Source: a virus. From it: a stretch of DNA of 25,072 bases. Numbering within the stretch: the first letter of the stretch is position 1; every line of letters starts with the position of its first letter. The notes under the pieces are model-generated. The model was not told the DNA's origin and did no database searches. It saw only the letters and a program-made list of their open reading frames with translations. The stretch lies in the IMG/VR virus record IMGVR_UViG_3300049491_000893, positions 1-25,072 of that record. One strand, 5' to 3'. The translations under genes and the position numbers were made by a program. Shown here one piece after another: positions 1 to 12,525 of the stretch.

Positions 1-557
1 GGTTGGGGGAACGCGTGCGCGCGTACGCGGGGGGTATCCGGTGGGGTATCGGTAGGGGTATCTGATACCCCTACGGATGGGTATCCGCTTGTGTCTCCGA
101 AGTCGGTACGAAGAGCTTCAACGACCTGTGTCACTGCTGCTCGGGTGCCATTCGGTAACTGGTGCAGCGGTAGTCGAGATAGTTCCGTGAGGAACGCGTC
201 CCTCAGTTTCGGGGACTCAATCTGTTTGGCGTCCTCACGAAGTCTGAGCATCACCTTGGGTTGCTTGTAGACACCGTCATTTCTGACCATGGTGCGGACC
301 AACACTTCTTCGGTGTCGCGGTCGATGACGAGGAAACGTGCGTCGGCGAGGACGTCCAAACGTTCCTCGAGTTGGGTCGCGGTCAGCCCTGCGGCTTTGT
401 TCGCCCACCTCCGGACCCGTAGGGGTACCAGTCCGGCGTGTGACAAGTCGGGTTGGGACAGGACGAACAGGTAGAGGCGCTGCGCTCCCTCGTCGAGAGC
501 CACGAATTCGGGGTCGGTCCAAATGTCGGAGAGGATGCGTCCGTGTGATCGGGGCAT
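1..557 (-). CDS. Phage replication initiator, winged-helix-like (3' part cut by window edge)
   Basis: The minus-strand frame is open from an ATG at 557-555 to the window edge, giving at least 185 residues. The N-terminus (MPRSHGRILSDIWTDPEF, then a LDEGAQRLYLF stretch, SQPDLSHAG and a KQPKVM segment) matches from memory the N-terminal DNA-binding domain of actinophage replication initiators, which recruit the replisome to the phage origin. It is the last gene seen in the early minus-strand operon, a usual place for replication genes. The visible C-terminal part becomes repetitive (DTP every four residues) because the coding DNA holds the 12-bp repeats described separately. Upstream SD is weak, and the start overlaps the stop of a 13-codon ORF as TGATG, suggesting coupling. 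The family call is recognition by eye, not a search. Confidence 0.75.
   Translation of the reverse strand, partial: MPRSHGRILSDIWTDPEFVALDEGAQRLYLFVLSQPDLSHAGLVPLRVRRWANKAAGLTATQLEERLDVLADARFLVIDRDTEEVLVRTMVRNDGVYKQPKVMLRLREDAKQIESPKLRDAFLTELSRLPLHQLPNGTRAAVTQVVEALRTDFGDTSGYPSVGVSDTPTDTPPDTPRVRAHAFPQ
31..85. repeat. Iteron-like GGGGTATC repeats inside the replication initiator gene (candidate origin)
   Basis: GGGGTATC occurs at 31-38, 43-50 and 55-62, exactly 12 bp apart. It occurs inverted as GATACCCC at 64-71, and a seven-base copy (GGGTATC) is at 79-85. The third and fourth copies form a perfect inverted repeat, TAGGGGTATC (53-62) and GATACCCCTA (64-73), around one central base. An alternating purine-pyrimidine run (11-29) lies beside the array. 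Lambdoid phages place origin iterons inside the initiator gene (lambda O), so a self-contained origin is a reasonable inference. The alternative is that the repeats only reflect a DTPx peptide repeat. Confidence 0.6.
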
Positions 558-5445: not shown

Positions 5446-6576
5446 GTGGGTTGGCCGGAGGCGCACAGAGGTGAATGGCGAGGTGTCTACCGAGACGCCA
5501 ACGGGAAGCGCAGGAAGTCGACGACGACGTTCCGGTACAAAGCGCAAGCACGTGAGTGGGCAGAGTCCCAAGAACGCGCAGCCAAAACGGGCCGTGACCC
5601 GGACGCCGGACGTGTCCTGTTGAAAGTGTGGATCAGCCGGTGGGAAACCGGGAGAGTAGTCGAGCGCACCACCGAGGCCTCCGACGCCGGCCGCATTCGC
5701 GAGATTGTTGACCGGTTCGGTGACACCCCACTCGAGGACCTGTCACCGATGGCCATCTCGACGTGGTGCAAACAGCAATCGAAGGAGGGGCGGGGCCCGG
5801 CCACTGTCGCGAAGTACCACCGGCTCCTCTCACGCATTCTGAACGACGCCGTCCAGGAGCGGTTGATCACCGAGAACGTCGCGAAGTTCGTGAAGGTCTC
5901 GCTGCCGACCACGCACAAGGAGACGTATCTGACGCGGGGGCAGGTCGACGAGCTGATGCGACTGTCCGAGTCCCCTGTGGTGATTCGCACGTTGGCGTAC
6001 ACCGGGCGCAGGTGGGGGGAGTTCGCCGGCCTACACAAGGGCGACGTCGATTTTCTGCGCGGCGTGATGACGGTGTCCCAGACGGTCACGGAGGTGTCCG
6101 GGAAGTACATGATCAAGCCTTACCCAAAAGGTCGCCGCCCGATCCTGGTCCCGGTCCCTCAGCACGTGCTGGACGCCCTGGCCGGGCACATGGCGCAGAC
6201 TCCGCCGATCGTGTGCGGCCTGGAACGTGAGGACGGGAAGCCCCACAGGTGCTCGGGTCTGATCTTTCACACAGACCGCGGGAAACCCCTCTCACGCTGG
6301 GTGTGGCCCAGGACTCATCTTCTTCCACACCTGAGCGCTGCTGGGTGCCCACCAGAGACCACCACACACGACCTTCGGCACACCTACGCGTCGTGGCTGA
6401 TTCAGGACGGCGTGTCCCTACGTGTCGTGCAGAAGCTGCTCGGTCACAAGTCGATCGTGACGACGGAACGGTATTCCCACTTAGAGGCCGACACTGGGCT
6501 AGAGGCGGTCCGGAAAGCCCTGGACACCACATCTGACCCCACAGATGGACAACAAGAAGGACAGTCTTTCGCCTGA
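5446..6576 (+). CDS. int: Tyrosine-family site-specific integrase
   Basis: A 376-residue protein from GTG 5446, chosen because GGAAAGGG lies seven bases upstream and because upstream residues of the open frame are not integrase-like and would overlap xis. N-terminal arm-binding segment (GVYRDANGKRRKSTTTFRYK), a SAM-like core-binding domain (about 60-150), then the catalytic domain: R189 in TGRRWGE, K228 in the PYPKGRR beta-hairpin, H308 and R311 in HDLRH, H334 in LLGH, and nucleophile Y343 in ERYSH. All six catalytic positions are present, so it should be active. It catalyses recombination between attP, just downstream at 6601, and the host tRNA gene. Confidence 0.95.
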   Translation: MGWPEAHRGEWRGVYRDANGKRRKSTTTFRYKAQAREWAESQERAAKTGRDPDAGRVLLKVWISRWETGRVVERTTEASDAGRIREIVDRFGDTPLEDLSPMAISTWCKQQSKEGRGPATVAKYHRLLSRILNDAVQERLITENVAKFVKVSLPTTHKETYLTRGQVDELMRLSESPVVIRTLAYTGRRWGEFAGLHKGDVDFLRGVMTVSQTVTEVSGKYMIKPYPKGRRPILVPVPQHVLDALAGHMAQTPPIVCGLEREDGKPHRCSGLIFHTDRGKPLSRWVWPRTHLLPHLSAAGCPPETTTHDLRHTYASWLIQDGVSLRVVQKLLGHKSIVTTERYSHLEADTGLEAVRKALDTTSDPTDGQQEGQSFA

Positions 6577-6600
6577 AACTGTGTCTGACCTGGGGTTTTG

Positions 6601-6650
6601 TGGGGCCGACGAGGGGACTCGAACCCCTAACCCCCGCTTTACAAGGGCGG
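6601..6650 (-). other. attP: attP core: 3' half of a tRNA-Thr(UGU)-like gene
   Basis: Read on the minus strand, this stretch folds as tRNA positions 27-76. It has an anticodon stem CCGCC/AGCGG with one C-A mismatch, a loop CTTGTAA carrying anticodon TGT (6643-6641), a five-base variable loop, a perfect T stem AGGGG/CCCCT with loop TTCGAGT, an acceptor strand CGTCGGC and a CCA end. The D-arm half and 5' acceptor strand are missing, so it is not a tRNA gene. A tRNA 3' half right after a tyrosine integrase is the usual attachment core, rebuilding the host tRNA on integration. The exact crossover is not determinable here. Confidence 0.85.
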
Positions 6651-6663
6651 GTTCAGGTGCTGG

Positions 6664-6699
6664 TTCCGCAACTGTTTACGATTCCCGCAGGAAAACAGT
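6664..6699. repeat. Inverted repeat beside attP (candidate integrase arm sites)
   Basis: ACTGTTT (6671-6677) and AAACAGT (6693-6699) form inverted arms 15 bp apart immediately beside the tRNA-like core. The left arm lies in TTCCGCAACTGTTT (6664-6677), which is repeated exactly inside the Cro-like gene at 3449-3462. Arm-type integrase or excisionase binding is plausible, given the position. The rest of 6577-6769 holds no gene that I can support. Confidence 0.35.
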
Positions 6700-6769
6700 G
6701 CGTACGGTTGTTGTTTTGTTTAGGTAGGTGGTGACCATTCAGACACCACACCAGACACCACAACCAGCG

Positions 6770-8218
6770 CTACAGCTCCTCGTAGTGGAACCACTTGACA
6801 TACCACTCACACGCGGCCCCGCCGCCGTACGGGAAGCCGAAGCCAAAGCGAGTTGGCGTCGTCCCATTTGACCTAGTGGCGGACCAAGAAGACCAAGTTA
6901 GCCCGTTGAATGACCACCGCATCGAATAGTCGGTGCCGACCTTCCGGTGTGACATCCAAAGAGTTCCGTTAGAGCCGGTGACGTGAGAGCCGTCGCCTGC
7001 CACTGATGCCGTGGAATATGCGTAAGCGCTAATGTCTGAGAGCAACTTAGACGAAGCGTTGCCGACATAATCCAACGCTCCCGAACCCGTGCCCGCATTG
7101 GAAAACGACACGAGTCCCAGCATTTGTGTGGCCCCACCAAAAAACGTCCACGAGTAACACATTGACGTAATCCAGTCCCCGCTGGGGATGGCCTGCAGCA
7201 TTGCGTACGCGGCGGAGCCGACCTCGTGTCTAATTTTGACGGCTTTGTCGCCAACGGTACTGACAGTCGGGCTGGCGTTGTAGACGGTCCACTTGCTATC
7301 GATGGTGCCCGAGTCGAAAGCGTCTGAGTATGGAGACGAAAAGTCAGCGGGTCTGAGCAGATCGTCGTCGGACCCGCCGCCCGCACTAGAAAAACCCGGC
7401 ACCACCAACCAAACATCGTTAGCGATGTGGAGTACCTGGGCGGCCTGGTTTTCGGCCAACACAAGTTCGTCGCCGTCGACCGTCACACCGGACCCGGGGG
7501 TGATCGTGACCGGCCCTGCGCCGATGTTCACCAACTTCAACACAGCCATCGGGTCGACGGAGAACGGCACTGACGAGAAGGGCGGAATCGTGGCCGCGAC
7601 CGGTGATGCGTTGTCGAACGTGACCGCCTCCACCGCATCCGCAGCGACGAACGTGTAGGACACCCCGGTTTGGGTGTTCACCTCGCGGTGATCGGTGAGC
7701 GACCACACCGAATCGCCACGCAAAGACTTCGTGGCATCCGCAGTCCCAGAACCCAGACGGGCAGCGGCGAACGTGCCCGAGTTGGTGTCGGATGCGGCGT
7801 GGTTGTGGGCGTTGGGGTCGCGGTCATCACTCAGGCGAGGGTCGTCGCCGGCCGCGACTTCCCCAGCTCCTGTGCCGACGTCCAGGACTGAGGCGTCCCC
7901 CAAACCCAGGTTCGTGCGGGCCGTCGCCGCGTTCGCGAGGTCGGAGAGGTTGTTCGACTTCAACGGGTACTGCGTGTGCGGGTTACCGACAGTCAGATTC
8001 GACAGGGCCGCATGATCGGTGGTCCCCGCAGGACCAGTCGGCCCCTCAGGACCTTCCGGGCCCTCAGGTCCTTCCGCACCGGCAACGCCCTGAATTCCTT
8101 GCGGGCCTTGCGCACCGGCAGCGCCAGCAGCCCCGGCGGGGCCTTGAGGGCCGACGTCACCTTCCGCACCGGGTATCCCGGGTGGGCCTTCGGCGACGTA
8201 AACAATGTCAGTTGCCAT
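6770..8218 (-). CDS. Collagen-like tail fibre / minor tail protein
   Basis: A 482-residue protein. Residues 11-64 are 18 uninterrupted Gly-X-Y triplets, a collagen-like triple-helical stalk. Next comes a tail-fibre linker ([19 protein letters not shown], then an [11 protein letters not shown] motif, [18 protein letters not shown]) and a segment ending in SLRGDSVW, all common in phage fibres. After a Gly/Ser/Asp-rich hinge near 278-290, residues 295-482 look like an aromatic-rich beta-sandwich, perhaps a lectin-like receptor-binding domain. It is likely a homotrimeric fibre at the tail tip recognising the cell surface. Its ATG overlaps the upstream gene's stop (TGATG). Confidence 0.85.
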
Positions 8219-8592
8219 CAGTCAGTCACTCCTTGAGAGACACGGATTTGGCCCATCGCCCACCGTTCACGGCCGTACGGCCCGTCCAGTTCGATCTGGT
8301 AGTGACCGACCATCCACAGCCACTCGTCGGATTCGGCGTGGGTGGCGGAGACTGTGATCCAAATATCGGTCGGATAGTCAGGGTCGTCGACGATGCTGAC
8401 CGTCAATTCGGCCAAAAGTTCACCTGAAAGTTTTTGGGTCTTCCTCACTTGGCAGGCACCTGTGAAATCAGCCGCCGTCAAGTTCACCGTTTCGCGGTGA
8501 CGCCGCCAACCATGCGAAAAGTCGGCACCCTGAGGGACCAAAAGGTCCTGTTGGACGATTGCCGGTTCGTCCACGACCCGCAATTTCGGCAT
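8218..8592 (-). CDS. Small tail protein, BppU/LtfC-like beta-sandwich
   Basis: A 124-residue protein from ATG 8592; the open frame extends to 8802 but the extra residues are Cys/Arg-rich and would overlap the divergent gene at 8722. The pattern ([15 protein letters not shown], then [22 protein letters not shown], then [19 protein letters not shown]) fits the beta-sandwich domains found beside actinophage tail fibres. It likely forms part of the tail-tip attachment of the fibre encoded directly downstream. SD is weak, and a 14-bp palindrome lies eight bases upstream. Confidence 0.65.
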
Positions 8593-8600
8593 GCGTGAAG

Positions 8601-8614
8601 TGTCCCACGGGACA
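8601..8614. promoter_or_regulatory. Inverted repeat TGTCCC-AC-GGGACA in a divergent gap
   Basis: Six-base perfect arms separated by two bases, placed between the minus-strand tail fibre unit and the plus-strand accessory cassette. A related dyad (GTGTCC/GGAACAC) lies upstream of the endolysin gene around 12551-12566. A regulator operator is possible. I find no convincing -35/-10 pair in 8593-8721 on either strand. Confidence 0.3.
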
Positions 8615-8721
8615 ACGAACAGAACCCGTGAGGCGCAGCGACAACTCTCAAACCGGTAAACACCCCATGTACAGGTCTGTGGTGTGCCTACAGTCACCCG
8701 AAACAGCACACGGGGGCACAT

Positions 8722-9111
8722 GTGAGAACAGCTGCAGTGTTGGCGCTCGCCGGCGGAATCATCCTGTTCGGTTTCGGCGCCCGAACAGCCATCGACGGGC
8801 AAGGCTCAGACGCTGGTGAAGTGTCGTTCACATCGGATTGTGACTACGTCCTGGACTTCGACAACGGCCACCAGCTCGTCGCCACAGCGTTCGTCACGAA
8901 CACGTCTAACGGGCCGGTTGAGGTTGATGTGGAAGCGGTGTGGCGGCAGGGCGGGAACCCGCCCATCACCGCATCGCGGACTTTGACTCTGGCCGAGGGA
9001 CGCGCCGACGTTGAGGTACACCTCAAACAACCGGCCACCAACACCGAAATCGAACTCCTCCAAACACTCGACAATGCAGACCAGTGCGCCGTCACCGCAA
9101 CCCTCAAATAG
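8722..9111 (+). CDS. Exported or membrane-anchored protein of the accessory cassette
   Basis: A 129-residue protein starting at GTG 8722 with GGGGG seven bases upstream. Residues 4-20 (AAVLALAGGIILFGFGA) are a single hydrophobic segment, a signal anchor or signal peptide without a clear cleavage or lipobox motif. The rest (33-129) is beta-rich (ATAFVTNTSNGPVEVDVEAV, ASRTLTLAEGRADVEVHL), resembling an immunoglobulin-like sandwich, with C40 and C122 placed to form a disulfide outside the membrane. No family recognised. It opens the plus-strand cassette, opposite to the late genes around it, so it could be expressed in the lysogen. Surface exclusion of other phages is a guess from location and topology only. 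Confidence 0.65.
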   Translation: MRTAAVLALAGGIILFGFGARTAIDGQGSDAGEVSFTSDCDYVLDFDNGHQLVATAFVTNTSNGPVEVDVEAVWRQGGNPPITASRTLTLAEGRADVEVHLKQPATNTEIELLQTLDNADQCAVTATLK

Positions 9112-9123
9112 AAGGATTTGGAC

Positions 9124-9378
9124 ATGGCTGATGTGACAGTGAAATACACCGGCGGACCTATGGGTGCGAGTGCGTTGGCGCAGATGCTCCGGGCCGAGGG
9201 CGTCACAGTCGACTACGAGGCGCCCATGGAGCGACGTTCGGCTGAAACGATGGTTGAGTACGTGGTCCTCTACTACTTCTGCAAGGGCGGGGATGCTGCG
9301 ATCGCGGCGGCCTTGGCGAAGTTCCGTCAGTCCAGGTTCGGTGGGACGTCGACAGCAGAACCAACCGACAACGACTAG
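9124..9378 (+). CDS. Small alpha/beta protein of the accessory cassette, unknown function
   Basis: An 84-residue protein from ATG 9124, with AGAAGGA seven bases upstream. It has a strand (ADVTVKYTGG), a helix (ASALAQMLRAEG), a strand (VTVDYEAPMERRS), a hydrophobic helix (ETMVEYVVLYYFCKGG), an Ala-rich helix and an acidic tail. Short actinobacterial proteins with this layout and a YExPxERR-type segment exist, but I know of no assigned function. It follows the exported protein by 12 bases and is probably co-transcribed with it. Confidence 0.65.
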   Translation: MADVTVKYTGGPMGASALAQMLRAEGVTVDYEAPMERRSAETMVEYVVLYYFCKGGDAAIAAALAKFRQSRFGGTSTAEPTDND

Positions 9379-9404
9379 GTGCGAGCATCCGTGCTGTGTT
9401 TGGG

Positions 9405-9433
9405 TTGACAGTCAAACAGACCGGGGATAGTTT
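9405..9433 (+). promoter_or_regulatory. Consensus-like sigma70-type promoter for the accessory cassette
   Basis: A perfect -35 TTGACA (9405-9410), a 17-bp spacer and -10 TAGTTT (9428-9433) lie 55 bp before the next gene's start. This is the best promoter match noticed in the window. The -35 overlaps a small dyad, TTGAC-A-GTCAA (9405-9415), a possible operator. A host-polymerase promoter here implies that genes 9488-10608 can be expressed independently of the phage late programme. Confidence 0.7.
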
Positions 9434-9487
9434 CATCTCACAAGGGAAGCCGACCAGGGCAAGCCCAACCCTCCCCGGGAGAACACC

Positions 9488-9808
9488 ATGGCCGACCCAC
9501 GCTGGGACCGCCTCATCCAGTCACTCGCCGAAGCCGGAATCGAAGCGAAACTCACCGAACGCGACTACGTCCAAGACGGCCCTTGGGGCCAAGGGATCCG
9601 CTACGGCGTCTCAAGGTCCATCATCATTCGCACACCAACCGGTGCCGTCGAGATCAGTGACCGGTGGTGGAGAAAGAACCGCGACGTCTGGATCGGATGG
9701 GACGTCACCCGCGAAGACCGCCAAGGCATCGTCAAACGCCAGTGGGGACCAACTAAGAAACGCGCCGAAGTCCGGTCCGCAGTACTCACAGCGTTGGAAG
9801 AGTCCTGA
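9488..9808 (+). CDS. Accessory-cassette protein of unknown function
   Basis: A 106-residue protein from ATG 9488 with GGGAG six bases upstream. The N-terminal helix (RWDRLIQSLAEAGIEAKL) is followed by a beta-rich, Trp-rich middle (SIIIRTPTGAVEISDRWWRK, DVWIGWDVTRED) and a C-terminal basic helix (KKRAEVRSAVLTALEES). It looks cytoplasmic, with no TM or Cys motif. No family recognised. It is the first gene after the strong promoter. Its TGA overlaps a 10-codon ORF (TGATG) that leads into the next gene. Confidence 0.65.
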   Translation: MADPRWDRLIQSLAEAGIEAKLTERDYVQDGPWGQGIRYGVSRSIIIRTPTGAVEISDRWWRKNRDVWIGWDVTREDRQGIVKRQWGPTKKRAEVRSAVLTALEES

Positions 9809-9840
9809 TGCAACTACGAGACACGGAGGAGGGAAGCTGA
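9808..9840 (+). CDS. 10-aa linking mini-ORF
   Basis: The ATG at 9808 overlaps the preceding stop (TGATG). Ten codons later the frame ends in TGA at 9838-9840, overlapping the next gene's ATG, again TGATG. It contains the GGAGG that serves as SD for the next gene. It may merely carry ribosomes across the 31-base gap. A coincidental frame is quite possible. Confidence 0.25.
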   Translation: MQLRDTEEGS

Positions 9841-10049
9841 TGGCACGTCTCCCGCTCCCATCCGGGCCAGCAGGTGAGTTGGTTTATGTGGCGTCGACGA
9901 TGACCAAATATTTCCAGGTCCGCCGTGACAGTGAAGGCTTCGTCGTTGAAGAGAAGTACTACGCCGACTCGGAGTGGCACCGCTTAGCGTGGTTCGCCGA
10001 CCAAGACGATGCCGTGACCTACGCCGACAAGAGGAACTGGGACTCATGA
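9840..10049 (+). CDS. Small accessory-cassette protein, unknown function
   Basis: A 69-residue protein from ATG 9840 with GGAGG about six bases upstream. The sequence (GELVYVASTMTKYFQVRR, then VVEEKYYADSEWHRLAWF, then DDAVTYADKRNWDS) looks like a small beta-sheet followed by a helix, rich in aromatic residues. Its stop overlaps the HTH gene's ATG (ATGA), so the two are coupled. No family recognised; pairing with an HTH gene is compatible with an antitoxin-like or co-regulator role, but nothing in the sequence shows that. Confidence 0.6.
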   Translation: MARLPLPSGPAGELVYVASTMTKYFQVRRDSEGFVVEEKYYADSEWHRLAWFADQDDAVTYADKRNWDS

Positions 10050-10444
10050 CGCCCATCGAGTTGAAGGCCCGCCGTGAGGCGTTGGGGTTGTCCCAGTCGG
10101 CGTTGGCCGGCATGTTGGACGTCGCCCAAAACACTGTGTCTCAGTGGGAGGGTGGGCAACGCAGAGTCCCTGACGGGATCGACGCCGAACTCGCGGCATG
10201 CGAGGACCTGGTCGAAGAGTTTGTGGACCTTACGTTGAGGCACGTCACGAGGAATCCCGGTTCTGATTTCGTGTCCACCCACGCCACGGACACAGCCATG
10301 TGGGCGGCGCAGCCTCAGCTTGAAGGGAAGGCCGCAGTACTGCACAGGGTTGCTATGGCCCGGGCCGCGACCATCCTGCGCCGCGATTATCACCCAGTGG
10401 CGATTGTGGACTGGTCACACGCCGACTTTGCGGATACCCCGTGA
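10046..10444 (+). CDS. HTH (XRE/DUF1870-like) regulator of the accessory cassette
   Basis: A 132-residue protein with a clear XRE helix-turn-helix at residues 3-45 (IELKARREALGLSQSALAGM, DVAQNTVSQWEGGQRRVPDG), followed by a helical part (LEGKAAVLHRVAMARAATIL) and DYHPVAIVDW. The two-part layout recalls DUF1870-type proteins. It probably regulates the accessory cassette; the TTGACAGTCAA dyad at the upstream promoter is a candidate site. Its ends overlap both neighbours (ATGA and GTGA). Confidence 0.75.
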   Translation: MTPIELKARREALGLSQSALAGMLDVAQNTVSQWEGGQRRVPDGIDAELAACEDLVEEFVDLTLRHVTRNPGSDFVSTHATDTAMWAAQPQLEGKAAVLHRVAMARAATILRRDYHPVAIVDWSHADFADTP

Positions 10445-10608
10445 CCGGCGTGCGTTGCTTGAAGCAGCGATACCCAGATGCCATTGCTGCGAAACTCGCG
10501 CTGGCTGTGCTCCAGCGGCAAGACAAGGCAACTCACACTGAGCGGAGGGCGTATCGCTGCCCTCTGTGTCGCGGGTGGCATCTGACAAGCAAGGGGAAGC
10601 GCAAATAG
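10441..10608 (+). CDS. 55-aa zinc-ribbon protein
   Basis: A GTG start at 10441 overlaps the HTH gene's stop (GTGA). The 55-residue product has a basic helical start (RCLKQRYPDAIAAKLALAVL) and a C-terminal AYRCPLCRGWHLTSK, with a C-x2-C plus an upstream Cys6 and a His, the pattern of small zinc ribbons often seen in actinophages and actinobacterial mobile elements. It may bind nucleic acid. It is the last cassette gene and is directly followed by a terminator that overlaps its 3' end. Confidence 0.65.
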   Translation: MTGVRCLKQRYPDAIAAKLALAVLQRQDKATHTERRAYRCPLCRGWHLTSKGKRK

Positions 10609-10625
10609 CGGGGGTTGCGTTTTTT
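10600..10625 (+). terminator. Intrinsic terminator of the accessory cassette
   Basis: CGCAA (10600-10604) and TTGCG (10615-10619) can pair, followed at once by six T residues (10620-10625). This ends the plus-strand cassette. The stem is short, so it may work together with the stronger inverted repeat at 10638-10662. Confidence 0.5.
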
Positions 10626-10637
10626 CGATTGATTCGT

Positions 10638-10662
10638 CAACTACAACTCGGAGTTGTAGTTG
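10638..10662. terminator. Perfect 11-bp stem between convergent transcripts
   Basis: CAACTACAACT (10638-10648) and AGTTGTAGTTG (10652-10662) form a perfect hairpin with a CGG loop. It lies ten bases beyond the last minus-strand lysis gene and just after the plus-strand cassette's terminator. No T-run follows on either side, so a bidirectional barrier or an operator are both possible. Confidence 0.5.
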
Positions 10663-10671
10663 CGTTGGAGT

Positions 10672-10872
10672 TCAGACTTCGCGGCCTTGGGTGAGGTGTT
10701 GTCCGAGCCAAACCCCGCCGCCTGTGCAGACGACGGTCACCACGGCCCGCCCGGTGCGGGTGTCGCATCTGGTGAGGCACCGCAGGGTGTCGGTGAGGGT
10801 CCGGCCCCTGCCGTGTCGCCACGCCAAGACTTCGAGCGCGGCACCTGTGACGCCTAGGGCGGCCCAGGGCAT
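10672..10872 (-). CDS. Small membrane protein of the lysis cassette
   Basis: A 66-residue protein with two hydrophobic stretches (MPWAALGVTGAALEVLAW and AVVTVVCTGGGVWLGQHL) separated by a segment with basic residues (RTLTDTLRCLTRCDTRTG). This matches by eye the small membrane proteins near holins in actinophages. The ATG overlaps the upstream stop as TAATG. A role in lysis (second holin or antiholin) is inferred from position. It is the last gene of the lysis transcript before the hairpin. Confidence 0.6.
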   Translation of the reverse strand: MPWAALGVTGAALEVLAWRHGRGRTLTDTLRCLTRCDTRTGRAVVTVVCTGGGVWLGQHLTQGREV

Positions 10873-10997
10873 TAGCGTCGGCCCTTCGTGCGGTTGTAGA
10901 CGTACGCGCCGGCGAACACTCCGGCCATGCCGCCTGCGAACACCATGGCACCCGCGAGGATTGCCGACAGTGCCATCCCACCGGCTAGCGGTGTCAC
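10872..10997 (-). CDS. 41-aa single-span membrane peptide
   Basis: A GTG at 10997 with GAAGG about seven bases upstream opens a 41-residue frame. One long hydrophobic helix (MALSAILAGAMVFAGGMAGV and on to about residue 33) is followed by a basic tail (YNRTKGRR), giving an N-out, C-in topology by the positive-inside rule. Its TAA overlaps the next ATG (TAATG). Placed right after the holin, it may be an antiholin or accessory pore subunit. That function is inference from location and size. Confidence 0.6.
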   Translation of the reverse strand: MTPLAGGMALSAILAGAMVFAGGMAGVFAGAYVYNRTKGRR

Positions 10998-11000
10998 AGC

Positions 11001-11237
11001 TCAGCCTTCGGCCCGGTCGGGGTTGGTGAACAGGGCCTCTTGAACATCAGCTTTGTGGCGAGGCACCGGAACAACTTTCGCGCGGGCCACAACAGCGGCA
11101 ACGGCGATGATGGCGGTGTTCACCGCGGCCTGCCATCCGTTGGGCAGTTCGAGTCCGAACAGGACACCGAGTTGGAGGACGGCGATCGCGGCGGCGCTCC
11201 AAGCGACGGGTTCGATCGAGAAGTTGAATCGGCCCAT
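11001..11237 (-). CDS. Holin, two transmembrane segments
   Basis: A 78-residue protein with two TM helices: about 12-29 (AWSAAAIAVLQLGVLFGL) and 36-52 (QAAVNTAIIAVAAVVARA). A PVAW motif precedes the first and a KVVPV basic-hydrophobic segment follows the second; the C-terminus is charged. This is the pattern of the common actinophage holin family with PVAW and R-x-x-VTP features. It would assemble holes in the cytoplasmic membrane and release the endolysin. It lies downstream of the endolysin gene in the lysis cassette. Confidence 0.75.
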   Translation of the reverse strand: MGRFNFSIEPVAWSAAAIAVLQLGVLFGLELPNGWQAAVNTAIIAVAAVVARAKVVPVPRHKADVQEALFTNPDRAEG

Positions 11238-11249
11238 GATGGTTCTCTC

Positions 11250-11561
11250 CTATTTGTCGTCGACGTGGATGTCGAAGCCTTTAGCGATTTTGCGGACCAG
11301 GTCGTAGGTGGATTGGCCGTGGTTGGGGCGTAGTTCGGCCATCGCTTCCTCAACCTTTTTGAGTCGCACATCGGCGGCCTTCAGGCGGATGTCCAACGGT
11401 TCGACCAACTCGTGGTTGATGCGGCCAACGGCGTCTGAGATTTCGTTCTTCAACGGTGTGACGATCGTGAATTTCACGATCGTCCACAACACCCCGCCGA
11501 TCGCGGCTACTGCGAGGGCGATGCTGCCTAGATCCACGACGGCCTGCGCATATCTGTCCAC
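11250..11561 (-). CDS. Membrane protein with coiled coil, DUF2746-like
   Basis: A 103-residue protein with one TM helix (LGSIALAVAAIGGVLWTIV, about residues 12-30), a heptad-like helix (NEISDAVGRINHELVEPLDI, ADVRLKKVEEAMAELR) and the RPNHGQSTYDLVRKI signature, which recalls DUF2746 proteins of actinophage lysis regions. I place the start at GTG 11561, two bases after the stop of a 28-codon ORF; a TTG at 11642 would add 27 residues unlike the family and lacks an SD. The likely role is modulation of the holin or of lysis timing. Confidence 0.65.
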   Translation of the reverse strand: MDRYAQAVVDLGSIALAVAAIGGVLWTIVKFTIVTPLKNEISDAVGRINHELVEPLDIRLKAADVRLKKVEEAMAELRPNHGQSTYDLVRKIAKGFDIHVDDK

Positions 11562-11563
11562 GG

Positions 11564-11650
11564 CTACGCCGTCGAAATGACAACCACTGGACGCGTGAAC
11601 GTCTCGCAGTCGTCTGTTCTGGCGCCCCCACCAGGTGTCCAATCAGTCAT
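11564..11650 (-). CDS. 28-aa ORF between endolysin and DUF2746-like gene
   Basis: An ATG at 11650 with AAGGGG seven bases upstream opens a 28-codon frame beginning MTDWTPGGGARTDDCETFTR and ending in a short hydrophobic stretch (VVVIS). The SD is stronger than that of the gene behind it, whose GTG follows two bases after this stop. It may be a real small protein or a coupling leader. No homologue recognised. Confidence 0.4.
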   Translation of the reverse strand: MTDWTPGGGARTDDCETFTRPVVVISTA

Positions 11651-11664
11651 GCGGTGTCCCCTTG

Positions 11665-12525
11665 TCACTTCGCGTTGGTCCGTGACTTGAGGATGTAATT
11701 GCCAGAGACCAGCCGAATCCACTGCTCCCCAGCAGTGTTCGTGGTCGTCTTCGTGTACAGGAGCTGTGAACGGAACCCGCGGTAGCCGACGATTTTGGCT
11801 TTCGTCGACGGCATGTTCCGGGCGTAGGTGCCGGGGAAGGCGGTCACGACGGCCCCCAGGATCGGGACTTTGCCGAGGCCGACAGTCACGTAGTGGTCGG
11901 TGAGTTTTTGGACTTCTGGGAGCCGGGCCCAACCCTTGTCTCCAGGGCAGGCCTTCGCCGACACGCAACGGTGACCGTGCCACCGGGCGTTCGGTGTGGC
12001 CAGTCCGGACCGGATCTGTGCGGCAGCCCACCTCGCGGACAGGTCCACTTGAACGTCGGTGACGGGGTCGGCTTCCATCTGTGGCAGGCACAGGGCGCGG
12101 GCGGTGTAGTTCAGGTTCAGACCGGACTCGCCACCCTTGGGGAAGGTGACGCCCTTCGATGGGCACCCGGCCCGGTCACAGCTGCGACGCTCACGATCGT
12201 TGTAGGTGTGCGCCCCGCGCCGAGTCAACGGCTGGCCCTCCATCAGGCCGTTGCCGTTGAACACGGCGGCGTCGTAGGAGTACCAGGTGTTCGGGAAACG
12301 CGCCCGTCCGATGCGTTCAATGTTGCGCATCACCTGGTCTTCGCTACCGATCAGGTCGGAGGGGTCGTTGACGACGGCGATGTGCCAGAAAAACGCCTGC
12401 GCCGGGTCGACGACGGTCCGGTCGCTTGAGTAGAAATCTGGGTCTGCGCTCCCCCACTGTTCACGGGTCCGCATCGTCAGCCCTTGGGCGGCGAGCAGAG
12501 CACGTTCCCGAGCCACGTCAGTCAT
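11665..12525 (-). CDS. Endolysin, zinc amidase (PGRP/amidase_2-like)
   Basis: A 286-residue lysin. The catalytic domain (about 15-215) carries the zinc ligands H48 in FFWHIAVVND, H185 in WHGHRC and C193 in ACPG, with WYSYDAAVFNG corresponding to the conserved Tyr region, so it should cleave the amide between N-acetylmuramic acid and L-alanine. Residues 240-283 (STKAKIVGYRGFRSQLL, then EQWIRLVSGNYILKS) resemble an SH3-like cell-wall binding domain. No signal peptide, so export depends on the holin downstream. The ATG has GAGGGG nine bases upstream. The 86-bp gap to the tail gene upstream holds no gene. Confidence 0.85.
   Translation of the reverse strand: MTDVARERALLAAQGLTMRTREQWGSADPDFYSSDRTVVDPAQAFFWHIAVVNDPSDLIGSEDQVMRNIERIGRARFPNTWYSYDAAVFNGNGLMEGQPLTRRGAHTYNDRERRSCDRAGCPSKGVTFPKGGESGLNLNYTARALCLPQMEADPVTDVQVDLSARWAAAQIRSGLATPNARWHGHRCVSAKACPGDKGWARLPEVQKLTDHYVTVGLGKVPILGAVVTAFPGTYARNMPSTKAKIVGYRGFRSQLLYTKTTTNTAGEQWIRLVSGNYILKSRTNAK

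What the first reader, a model, noticed from the sequence alone, without database searches (positions are those of the whole stretch)
8722..10608. Plus-strand accessory cassette with its own promoter and terminator inside the late region
Six small genes run against the surrounding late genes: an exported protein, four small cytoplasmic proteins including one HTH regulator, and a zinc ribbon. A near-consensus promoter (TTGACA-17-TAGTTT at 9405) and a terminator (10600-10625) bracket its second part. Chained stop-start overlaps (TGATG, TGATG, ATGA, GTGA) tie the genes together. This looks like a lysogenically expressed moron, where defence or exclusion systems are often found, and most members have no recognised family.
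Basis: partly seen in the sequence, partly recalled or inferred. Interest (0 to 1): 0.6.

Follow-up and report, generated by a model that had tools for sequence, protein, structure and literature searches.

The report
Phage operon with anti-CRISPR-type regulator
A temperate phage of an actinobacterium carries, against the direction of its virion genes, a small self-contained operon of unknown small proteins ending in a regulator related to the one that controls anti-CRISPR genes, so it probably makes proteins that disarm the host's defences, although that activity is inferred and not shown.

Summary
The cassette is real. Six plus-strand genes lie between minus-strand lysis and tail-fibre genes. 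Five are conserved and under purifying selection in the only close relative found (L002); the sixth matches a phage zinc-ribbon family. The promoter at 9405-9433 is the only TTGACA-N16-18-TANNNT site in 25 kb and is conserved in L002. A 12-bp hairpin with a T tract ends the operon.

The main new point is gene 5 (10046-10444). It is not a generic HTH protein: it is a distant member of the Aca2/YdiL (DUF1870) regulators, over its full length, including the C-terminal dimerisation region. Aca2 is the repressor that ends and shuts down anti-CRISPR operons. Genes 3-5 have that layout: a promoter, small fast-changing unknown proteins, one gained in the relative, then the Aca2-like gene. Sixteen Streptomyces-type elements carry the same kind of regulator behind small, very acidic proteins and one shared promoter-operator block.

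I therefore favour a counter-defence operon, self-limited by its regulator, over a defence moron expressed in lysogeny. Only about 15% of Aca-like genes lie next to known acr genes, no effector here resembles a known inhibitor, and the operator in this phage is marginal (p about 0.05). Expression timing and activity are untested.

The parts
8722..9111 (+). g1: membrane-anchored or exported small protein (129 aa, GTG start), no known family
   Evidence: ORF; 72% identical protein in L002, dN 0.19 / dS 1.11; no hit in Pfam, PHROGs, NCBIfam or PADLOC
9124..9378 (+). g2: 84-aa protein, no known family
   Evidence: 84-85% identical in L002, dN 0.15 / dS 0.69; only sub-threshold Pfam hits
9395..9420 (+). 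candidate operator: imperfect inverted repeat TGTGTTTGGG-TTGACA-GTCAAACAGA around the -35; marginal
   Evidence: same axis in L002; scored as 10-nt arms with a 4-nt spacer at 9396-9419, 7/10 and 8/10 complementary; p about 0.05 by column shuffles; a first, stricter joint test gave p 0.80; only match of its consensus in the window (pattern derived from this site)
9405..9433 (+). promoter of g3-g6: TTGACA-17-TAGTTT
   Evidence: only TTGACA-N16-18-TANNNT in 25 kb; both hexamers and the 30 nt GGGGATAGTTTCATCTCACAAGGGAAGCCG identical in L002
9488..9808 (+). g3: 106-aa basic protein, candidate effector
   Evidence: 67-69% identical in L002; 36% homologue on a Tsukamurella plasmid, E 7e-7; conserved RWDRL and VW(I/V)GW-V-RED-W-TKKR motifs
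9808..9840 (+). 10-codon mini-ORF joining g3 and g4 by TGATG overlaps
   Evidence: sequence
9840..10049 (+). g4: 69-aa acidic protein, fastest-evolving gene of the cassette, candidate effector
   Evidence: 51-55% identical in L002, dN/dS about 0.47; pI 4.7; no family
10046..10444 (+). g5: Aca2/YdiL-like (DUF1870) HTH regulator
   Evidence: 73% identical in L002; PF08965 19.6 bits over profile 1-93 of 118, below cut-off 23.8; Gilgamesh gp87 4e-8, itself hit by ZF40 Aca2 at 9e-6; profile of 18 relatives matches g5 at 1.8e-26 and its C-terminal part alone at 4e-6
10441..10608 (+). g6: 55-aa zinc-ribbon protein (CPLC...H), absent from L002
   Evidence: PHROG 15216, 2.6e-10; homologues in Microbacterium and Rhodococcus phages; no match in L002
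10593..10626 (+). intrinsic terminator overlapping the end of g6
   Evidence: 12-bp stem, 10-nt loop, T tract, z -2.95; absent from L002

Best explanation
Genes 3-5 (plus 6 here) form an auto-repressed accessory operon of the acr-aca type. The promoter at 9405 is free when phage DNA enters the cell, so g3 and g4 (and gX in the relative) are made at once from tightly coupled genes. They are small proteins that most likely block a host defence (CRISPR-Cas, restriction or another system) or otherwise help takeover. g5, the last conserved gene, then accumulates, binds as a dimer at the promoter and shuts the operon down, in infection and in the prophage. Shown: operon layout, promoter, terminator, and the homology of g5 to Aca2/YdiL. 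Inferred: promoter binding, timing and counter-defence activity. g1-g2 are probably a separate accessory unit of unknown role.
For: Homology of g5: full-length homology to Aca2/YdiL proteins, by several routes. Pfam PF08965 matches over 93 positions, in both phages. ZF40 Aca2 links to Gilgamesh gp87, which links to g5. Plasmid homologues are annotated DUF1870. One profile matches both g5 and ZF40 Aca2, matches the C-terminal part of g5 alone, and not the other repressor-like genes tested from the window. Aca2, SO3848 and YdiL head the fold search, although that model is poor. Layout: promoter, small unknown genes, regulator last in L002; the effector slot changes fastest, with gX inserted and g4 most diverged. 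Related operons: 16 Streptomyces-type elements pair the same regulator with small proteins of pI about 4.1 and one dedicated promoter-operator block, found once per element in the 12 where the exact pattern matches.
Against: g5 is below the Pfam cut-off (19.6 against 23.8 bits). Only 386 of 2599 Aca-like genes lie near known acr genes (PMC9410906), and Aca2-like regulators occur in diverse contexts (PMC8434428). The operator is marginal (p 0.05; a first test gave 0.8). g3 is basic, unlike many acidic DNA mimics, and its homologue on the Tsukamurella plasmid has no Aca2-like gene in that record. No effector matches a known inhibitor. Only two phages carry the cassette in the collections searched.
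Confidence: 0.45

Rival explanations
1. [quoted passage not shown]
For: A promoter opposed to the late genes and a position in the late region near the integrase. Centrally located genes of actinophage prophages are known to be lysogenically expressed and to defend (PMC6426596). g1 has a membrane segment.
Against: No homology to a known defence protein. An Aca2-type regulator suggests shut-down in the prophage. The composition is not foreign.
Confidence: 0.22
2. g5 is a phage regulator of its own late or lysis region, and the small genes are virion or lysis accessories without an anti-immune role.
For: The block sits in the lysis/tail-fibre region and diverges to a similar degree as the adjacent lysis genes. 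YdiL-like regulators can stand alone (PMC8434428).
Against: The genes run against the late genes from their own promoter; no structural or lysis family matches; the promoter-operator block of related regulators occurs once per element, at their own operon.
Confidence: 0.18
3. A toxin-antitoxin or addiction module: g3 or g4 as toxin, g5 as antitoxin and repressor.
For: Tight coupling; HTH antitoxins are common, and HipB/MqsA-type HTH models give partial hits.
Against: Those hits cover only the HTH and are far below cut-off. No toxin family matches g3 or g4. g5's closest family is Aca2/YdiL, not an antitoxin family.
Confidence: 0.1

Closest known systems
acrIF8-aca2 operon of Pectobacterium phage ZF40
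   Same: Own promoter; small effector gene(s) followed by an Aca2-family HTH; lies near the lysis genes in a temperate phage (PMC8434428).
   Different: g5 is only 23% identical to ZF40 Aca2. More genes, with no acrIF8 homologue seen. The clear promoter inverted repeats of ZF40 are not matched here; only a weak repeat is present.
Aca2-like HTH operons of Streptomyces-type elements and Streptomyces phage Gilgamesh gp86-87 (found here)
   Same: Homologous regulator (34-40% identity over 108 aa) behind small proteins of unknown family.
   Different: They share a perfect operator and leader hairpins and very acidic effectors; the window cassette has neither that operator nor related effectors.
Sbash gp30-31 / CarolAnn gp43-44 prophage defence systems
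   Same: Accessory genes within an actinophage genome, expressed in lysogeny in those phages (PMC6426596).
   Different: No sequence relation is known; lysogenic expression is not shown here; those systems were not described with an Aca2-type regulator (from my reading of the passages).

Membership tests
Aca2/YdiL-like regulators (PF08965, formerly DUF1870) | N-terminal XRE-type HTH | tested here: met
   HTH_3, 34.6 bits, above its cut-off
Aca2/YdiL-like regulators (PF08965, formerly DUF1870) | homology continuing into the C-terminal dimerisation domain | tested here: met
   PF08965 over positions 1-93; C-terminal part of g5 alone matches a profile of 18 relatives at 4e-6, full length 1.8e-26; other repressor-like genes of the window do not match
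Aca2/YdiL-like regulators (PF08965, formerly DUF1870) | score above Pfam's own gathering cut-off | tested here: not met
   19.6 against 23.8 bits; 12 of the 20 related records searched do pass, so g5 is placed as a distant relative by homology and not called Aca2 itself
acr-aca operon | small genes upstream of, and co-transcribed with, an Aca-family HTH gene | tested here: met
   sequence, promoter, coupled starts and stops; co-transcription itself is inferred
acr-aca operon | inverted-repeat operator within the core promoter | tested here: inconclusive
   imperfect repeat around the -35 in both phages, p about 0.05; p 0.80 in a first, stricter test
acr-aca operon | an upstream gene with anti-CRISPR activity, or homologous to a known Acr | not testable with these tools
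   no homologue in the libraries searched; activity needs an experiment, so it is not filed as an acr-aca operon, only as working like one
prophage-expressed defence module (Sbash type) | expression in the lysogen and protection against other phages | not testable with these tools
   no transcript data
type II toxin-antitoxin module | a recognised toxin family next to the HTH | tested here: not met
   no toxin family for g3 or g4 in Pfam, NCBIfam, PADLOC or PHROGs

The most novel reading that the evidence does not exclude
Aca2-like regulators mark a large, unrecognised set of counter-defence operons in actinobacterial mobile elements. g3, g4 and gX of this phage, and the very acidic proteins of the 16 Streptomyces-type elements, would be new families of inhibitors of actinobacterial defence systems. 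In the Streptomyces set the regulator would act both on a dedicated DNA operator and on hairpins at the ribosome-binding site.
Probability: 0.3. Interest if true: 0.72.

Novelty: new member of a known kind. Interest (0 to 1): 0.5.

Why it matters
My keyword searches of the open library turned up no characterised Aca2-regulated operon in an actinobacterium. A regulator that marks such operons, with a visible operator in related elements, would give a direct route to candidate inhibitors of actinobacterial defence in Streptomyces and mycobacteria, where phage biology and phage therapy matter. The effectors are small and can be tested one by one.

Tried and rejected
RNA hairpins in the 5' leader of g3: folding is no better than shuffles (z about +0.4), so rejected for this phage.

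A shared operator counted as jointly paired columns gave p 0.8. A test of the best inverted repeat on one axis gave p 0.05. I keep it only as marginal, since it is the second test of the same region.

A recently acquired foreign insert: rejected on composition and on retention in L002.

Structure of g3: AlphaFold model too poor (mean pLDDT 56); Foldseek against viral and PDB libraries gave nothing. g4, g2 and g1 gave no credible PDB relatives.

Relatives: both genome-contig scans and the scans with g1, g2, g3 and the tail protein found only L002 as a close relative. Gilgamesh gp86 does not match g3. A search of bacterial genomes by taxon was not possible.

Full report
Setting. The window is a whole IMG/VR record of 25,072 bp with no near match among phage records. 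It carries an integrase, an excisionase, repressors, an exonuclease, a major head protein, a tape-measure protein, a collagen-like tail fibre, an amidase-type endolysin and a holin. It is therefore a temperate tailed phage or prophage. An actinobacterial host is my inference from GC of about 62% and from the relatives of g3, g5 and g6.

Observation. Six plus-strand genes (8722-10608) lie between minus-strand lysis genes and the minus-strand gene at 8218-8595 plus the tail fibre. The one close relative found (L002, IMGVR_UViG_3300049491_000833) keeps g1-g5 at the same place. dN/dS is 0.17 (g1), 0.21 (g2), 0.27 (g3), 0.47 (g4) and 0.15 (g5), and changes fall mainly on third positions except in g4. 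L002 has an extra gene, gX (7598-7822), between g3 and g4. It lacks g6 and the terminator, so there the HTH gene is last. The early half of the two phages is 95% identical and the tail genes 83-86%. The tail fibre and small holin genes have no nucleotide match, and the cassette is 73% identical. The cassette is thus an old, kept part of a variable region, not recent foreign cargo; its GC and GC3 fit the phage.

Control elements. TTGACA-17-TAGTTT at 9405-9433 is the only site of its kind in the window. Both hexamers and 30 nt around and after the -10 are identical in L002. The terminator at 10593-10626 is a 12-bp hairpin. Coupling is by ATGA and GTGA overlaps; between g3 and g4 it runs through a 10-codon mini-ORF bounded by two TGATG overlaps.

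The regulator. g5 has an ordinary HTH plus a C-terminal region. Pfam gives PF08965 (Aca2/YdiL-like) at 19.6 bits over positions 1-93 of 118, below its cut-off of 23.8, in both phages. Independent routes agree. The best phage homologue is Gilgamesh gp87 (4e-8), which is itself found with ZF40 Aca2 as query (9e-6). Plasmid homologues are annotated DUF1870, the old name of the family. A profile of 18 relatives matches g5 at 1.8e-26, its C-terminal part alone at 4e-6 and ZF40 Aca2 at 3e-14 (E-values for an assumed 1000 sequences), but not the other repressor-like genes of the window. A Foldseek search with a poor model (pLDDT 57) still put Aca2, SO3848 and a YdiL-family structure first, with E-values that are not significant on their own. 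The two phages' HTHs are identical across the recognition region. In the alignment to the Aca10 structure (7xi5; that this entry is Aca10 is from my own knowledge), Q17, Q33 and R39 of g5 line up with Aca10 residues implicated in DNA recognition (PMC9410881).

What the small proteins are. g1 has an N-terminal membrane segment; g2 is small. Neither has a family. g3 is basic (pI 9.6) with a 36% homologue on a Tsukamurella plasmid in a run of small unknown genes. g4 and gX are acidic (pI 4.7 and 4.6). g6 is a zinc ribbon seen in other phages. No fold could be assigned.

Related operons. A search for distant g5 relatives gave 15 Streptomyces-type IMG/VR elements with homologues over most or all of g5. 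Fourteen of these, together with plasmid NZ_CP109588 and phage Gilgamesh, make 16 records with one layout: a TTGCGC-like -35, an inverted repeat TTCCTA-WWW-TAGGAA, a TANNNT -10, a leader with GGGG...CCCC and CCGG-AAGGA-CCGG hairpins (the ribosome-binding site in the second loop), one or two small proteins, then the Aca2-like gene. 'Streptomyces-type' rests on the plasmid and phage hosts; the IMG/VR hosts are not named. The proteins next to the regulator have pI 4.1-4.4 and no Pfam family. The exact operator pattern occurs once in each of 12 records and never when read backwards; the other four records have variants. Helix 2 has paired substitutions, but in one record only, so the covariation support is slight. 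L029 fuses the acidic protein and the regulator. This shows that actinobacterial Aca2-like regulators sit in dedicated, apparently autoregulated small-gene operons, the same design as g3-g5. It does not show anti-CRISPR activity.

Interpretation. The best reading is an auto-repressed counter-defence operon. Limits: only 386 of 2599 (15%) Aca-like genes lie next to known acr genes (PMC9410906); Aca2-like regulators occur in other settings (PMC8434428); the window's own operator is marginal; the g3 homologue on the Tsukamurella plasmid has no Aca2-like gene in that record. Small-gene anti-defence clusters around aca genes are established in other phyla (PMC7648647).

Verdict. This is a new member of a known kind, with a lead on Streptomyces-type elements that may deserve more attention than the cassette itself.

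Noticed in passing
L020-L032, L034, L043, L013 (regulatory blocks listed): Sixteen Streptomyces-type elements share one promoter-operator-leader block in front of small acidic proteins and an Aca2-like regulator; the exact operator occurs once per element where the pattern matches. A candidate family of counter-defence operons.
   Followed up: partly
L029:4229-5218: The acidic small protein and the Aca2-like HTH appear fused into one 329-aa open frame.
   Followed up: no
window 10638-10662: Perfect 12+1+12 inverted repeat CAACTACAACTC-G-GAGTTGTAGTTG between the cassette terminator and the convergent minus-strand gene; folds strongly on both strands; absent from L002 together with g6.
   Followed up: partly
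window 6762-11888: Mosaic region: tail fibre and small holin genes are replaced or diverged between the two phages, while the early half is 95% identical.
   Followed up: partly
window 1 and 25072; L010: Both phage contigs appear to begin and end at nearly the same genome positions (about 25 kb, breaking within or next to the major head protein gene), perhaps an assembly break between co-existing strains.
   Followed up: no
window 6545-6727: Downstream of the integrase, the frame reads ADEGTRTPNPRFTR, a typical translation of a tRNA 3' end, so the attachment site may be a tRNA; ARAGORN finds no whole tRNA.
   Followed up: no
L042:4998-5570: The Tsukamurella plasmid g3 homologue is in a run of small coupled unknown genes; the annotated gene starts later (5100) than the homology (5001), so its start is probably mis-annotated.
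   Followed up: partly
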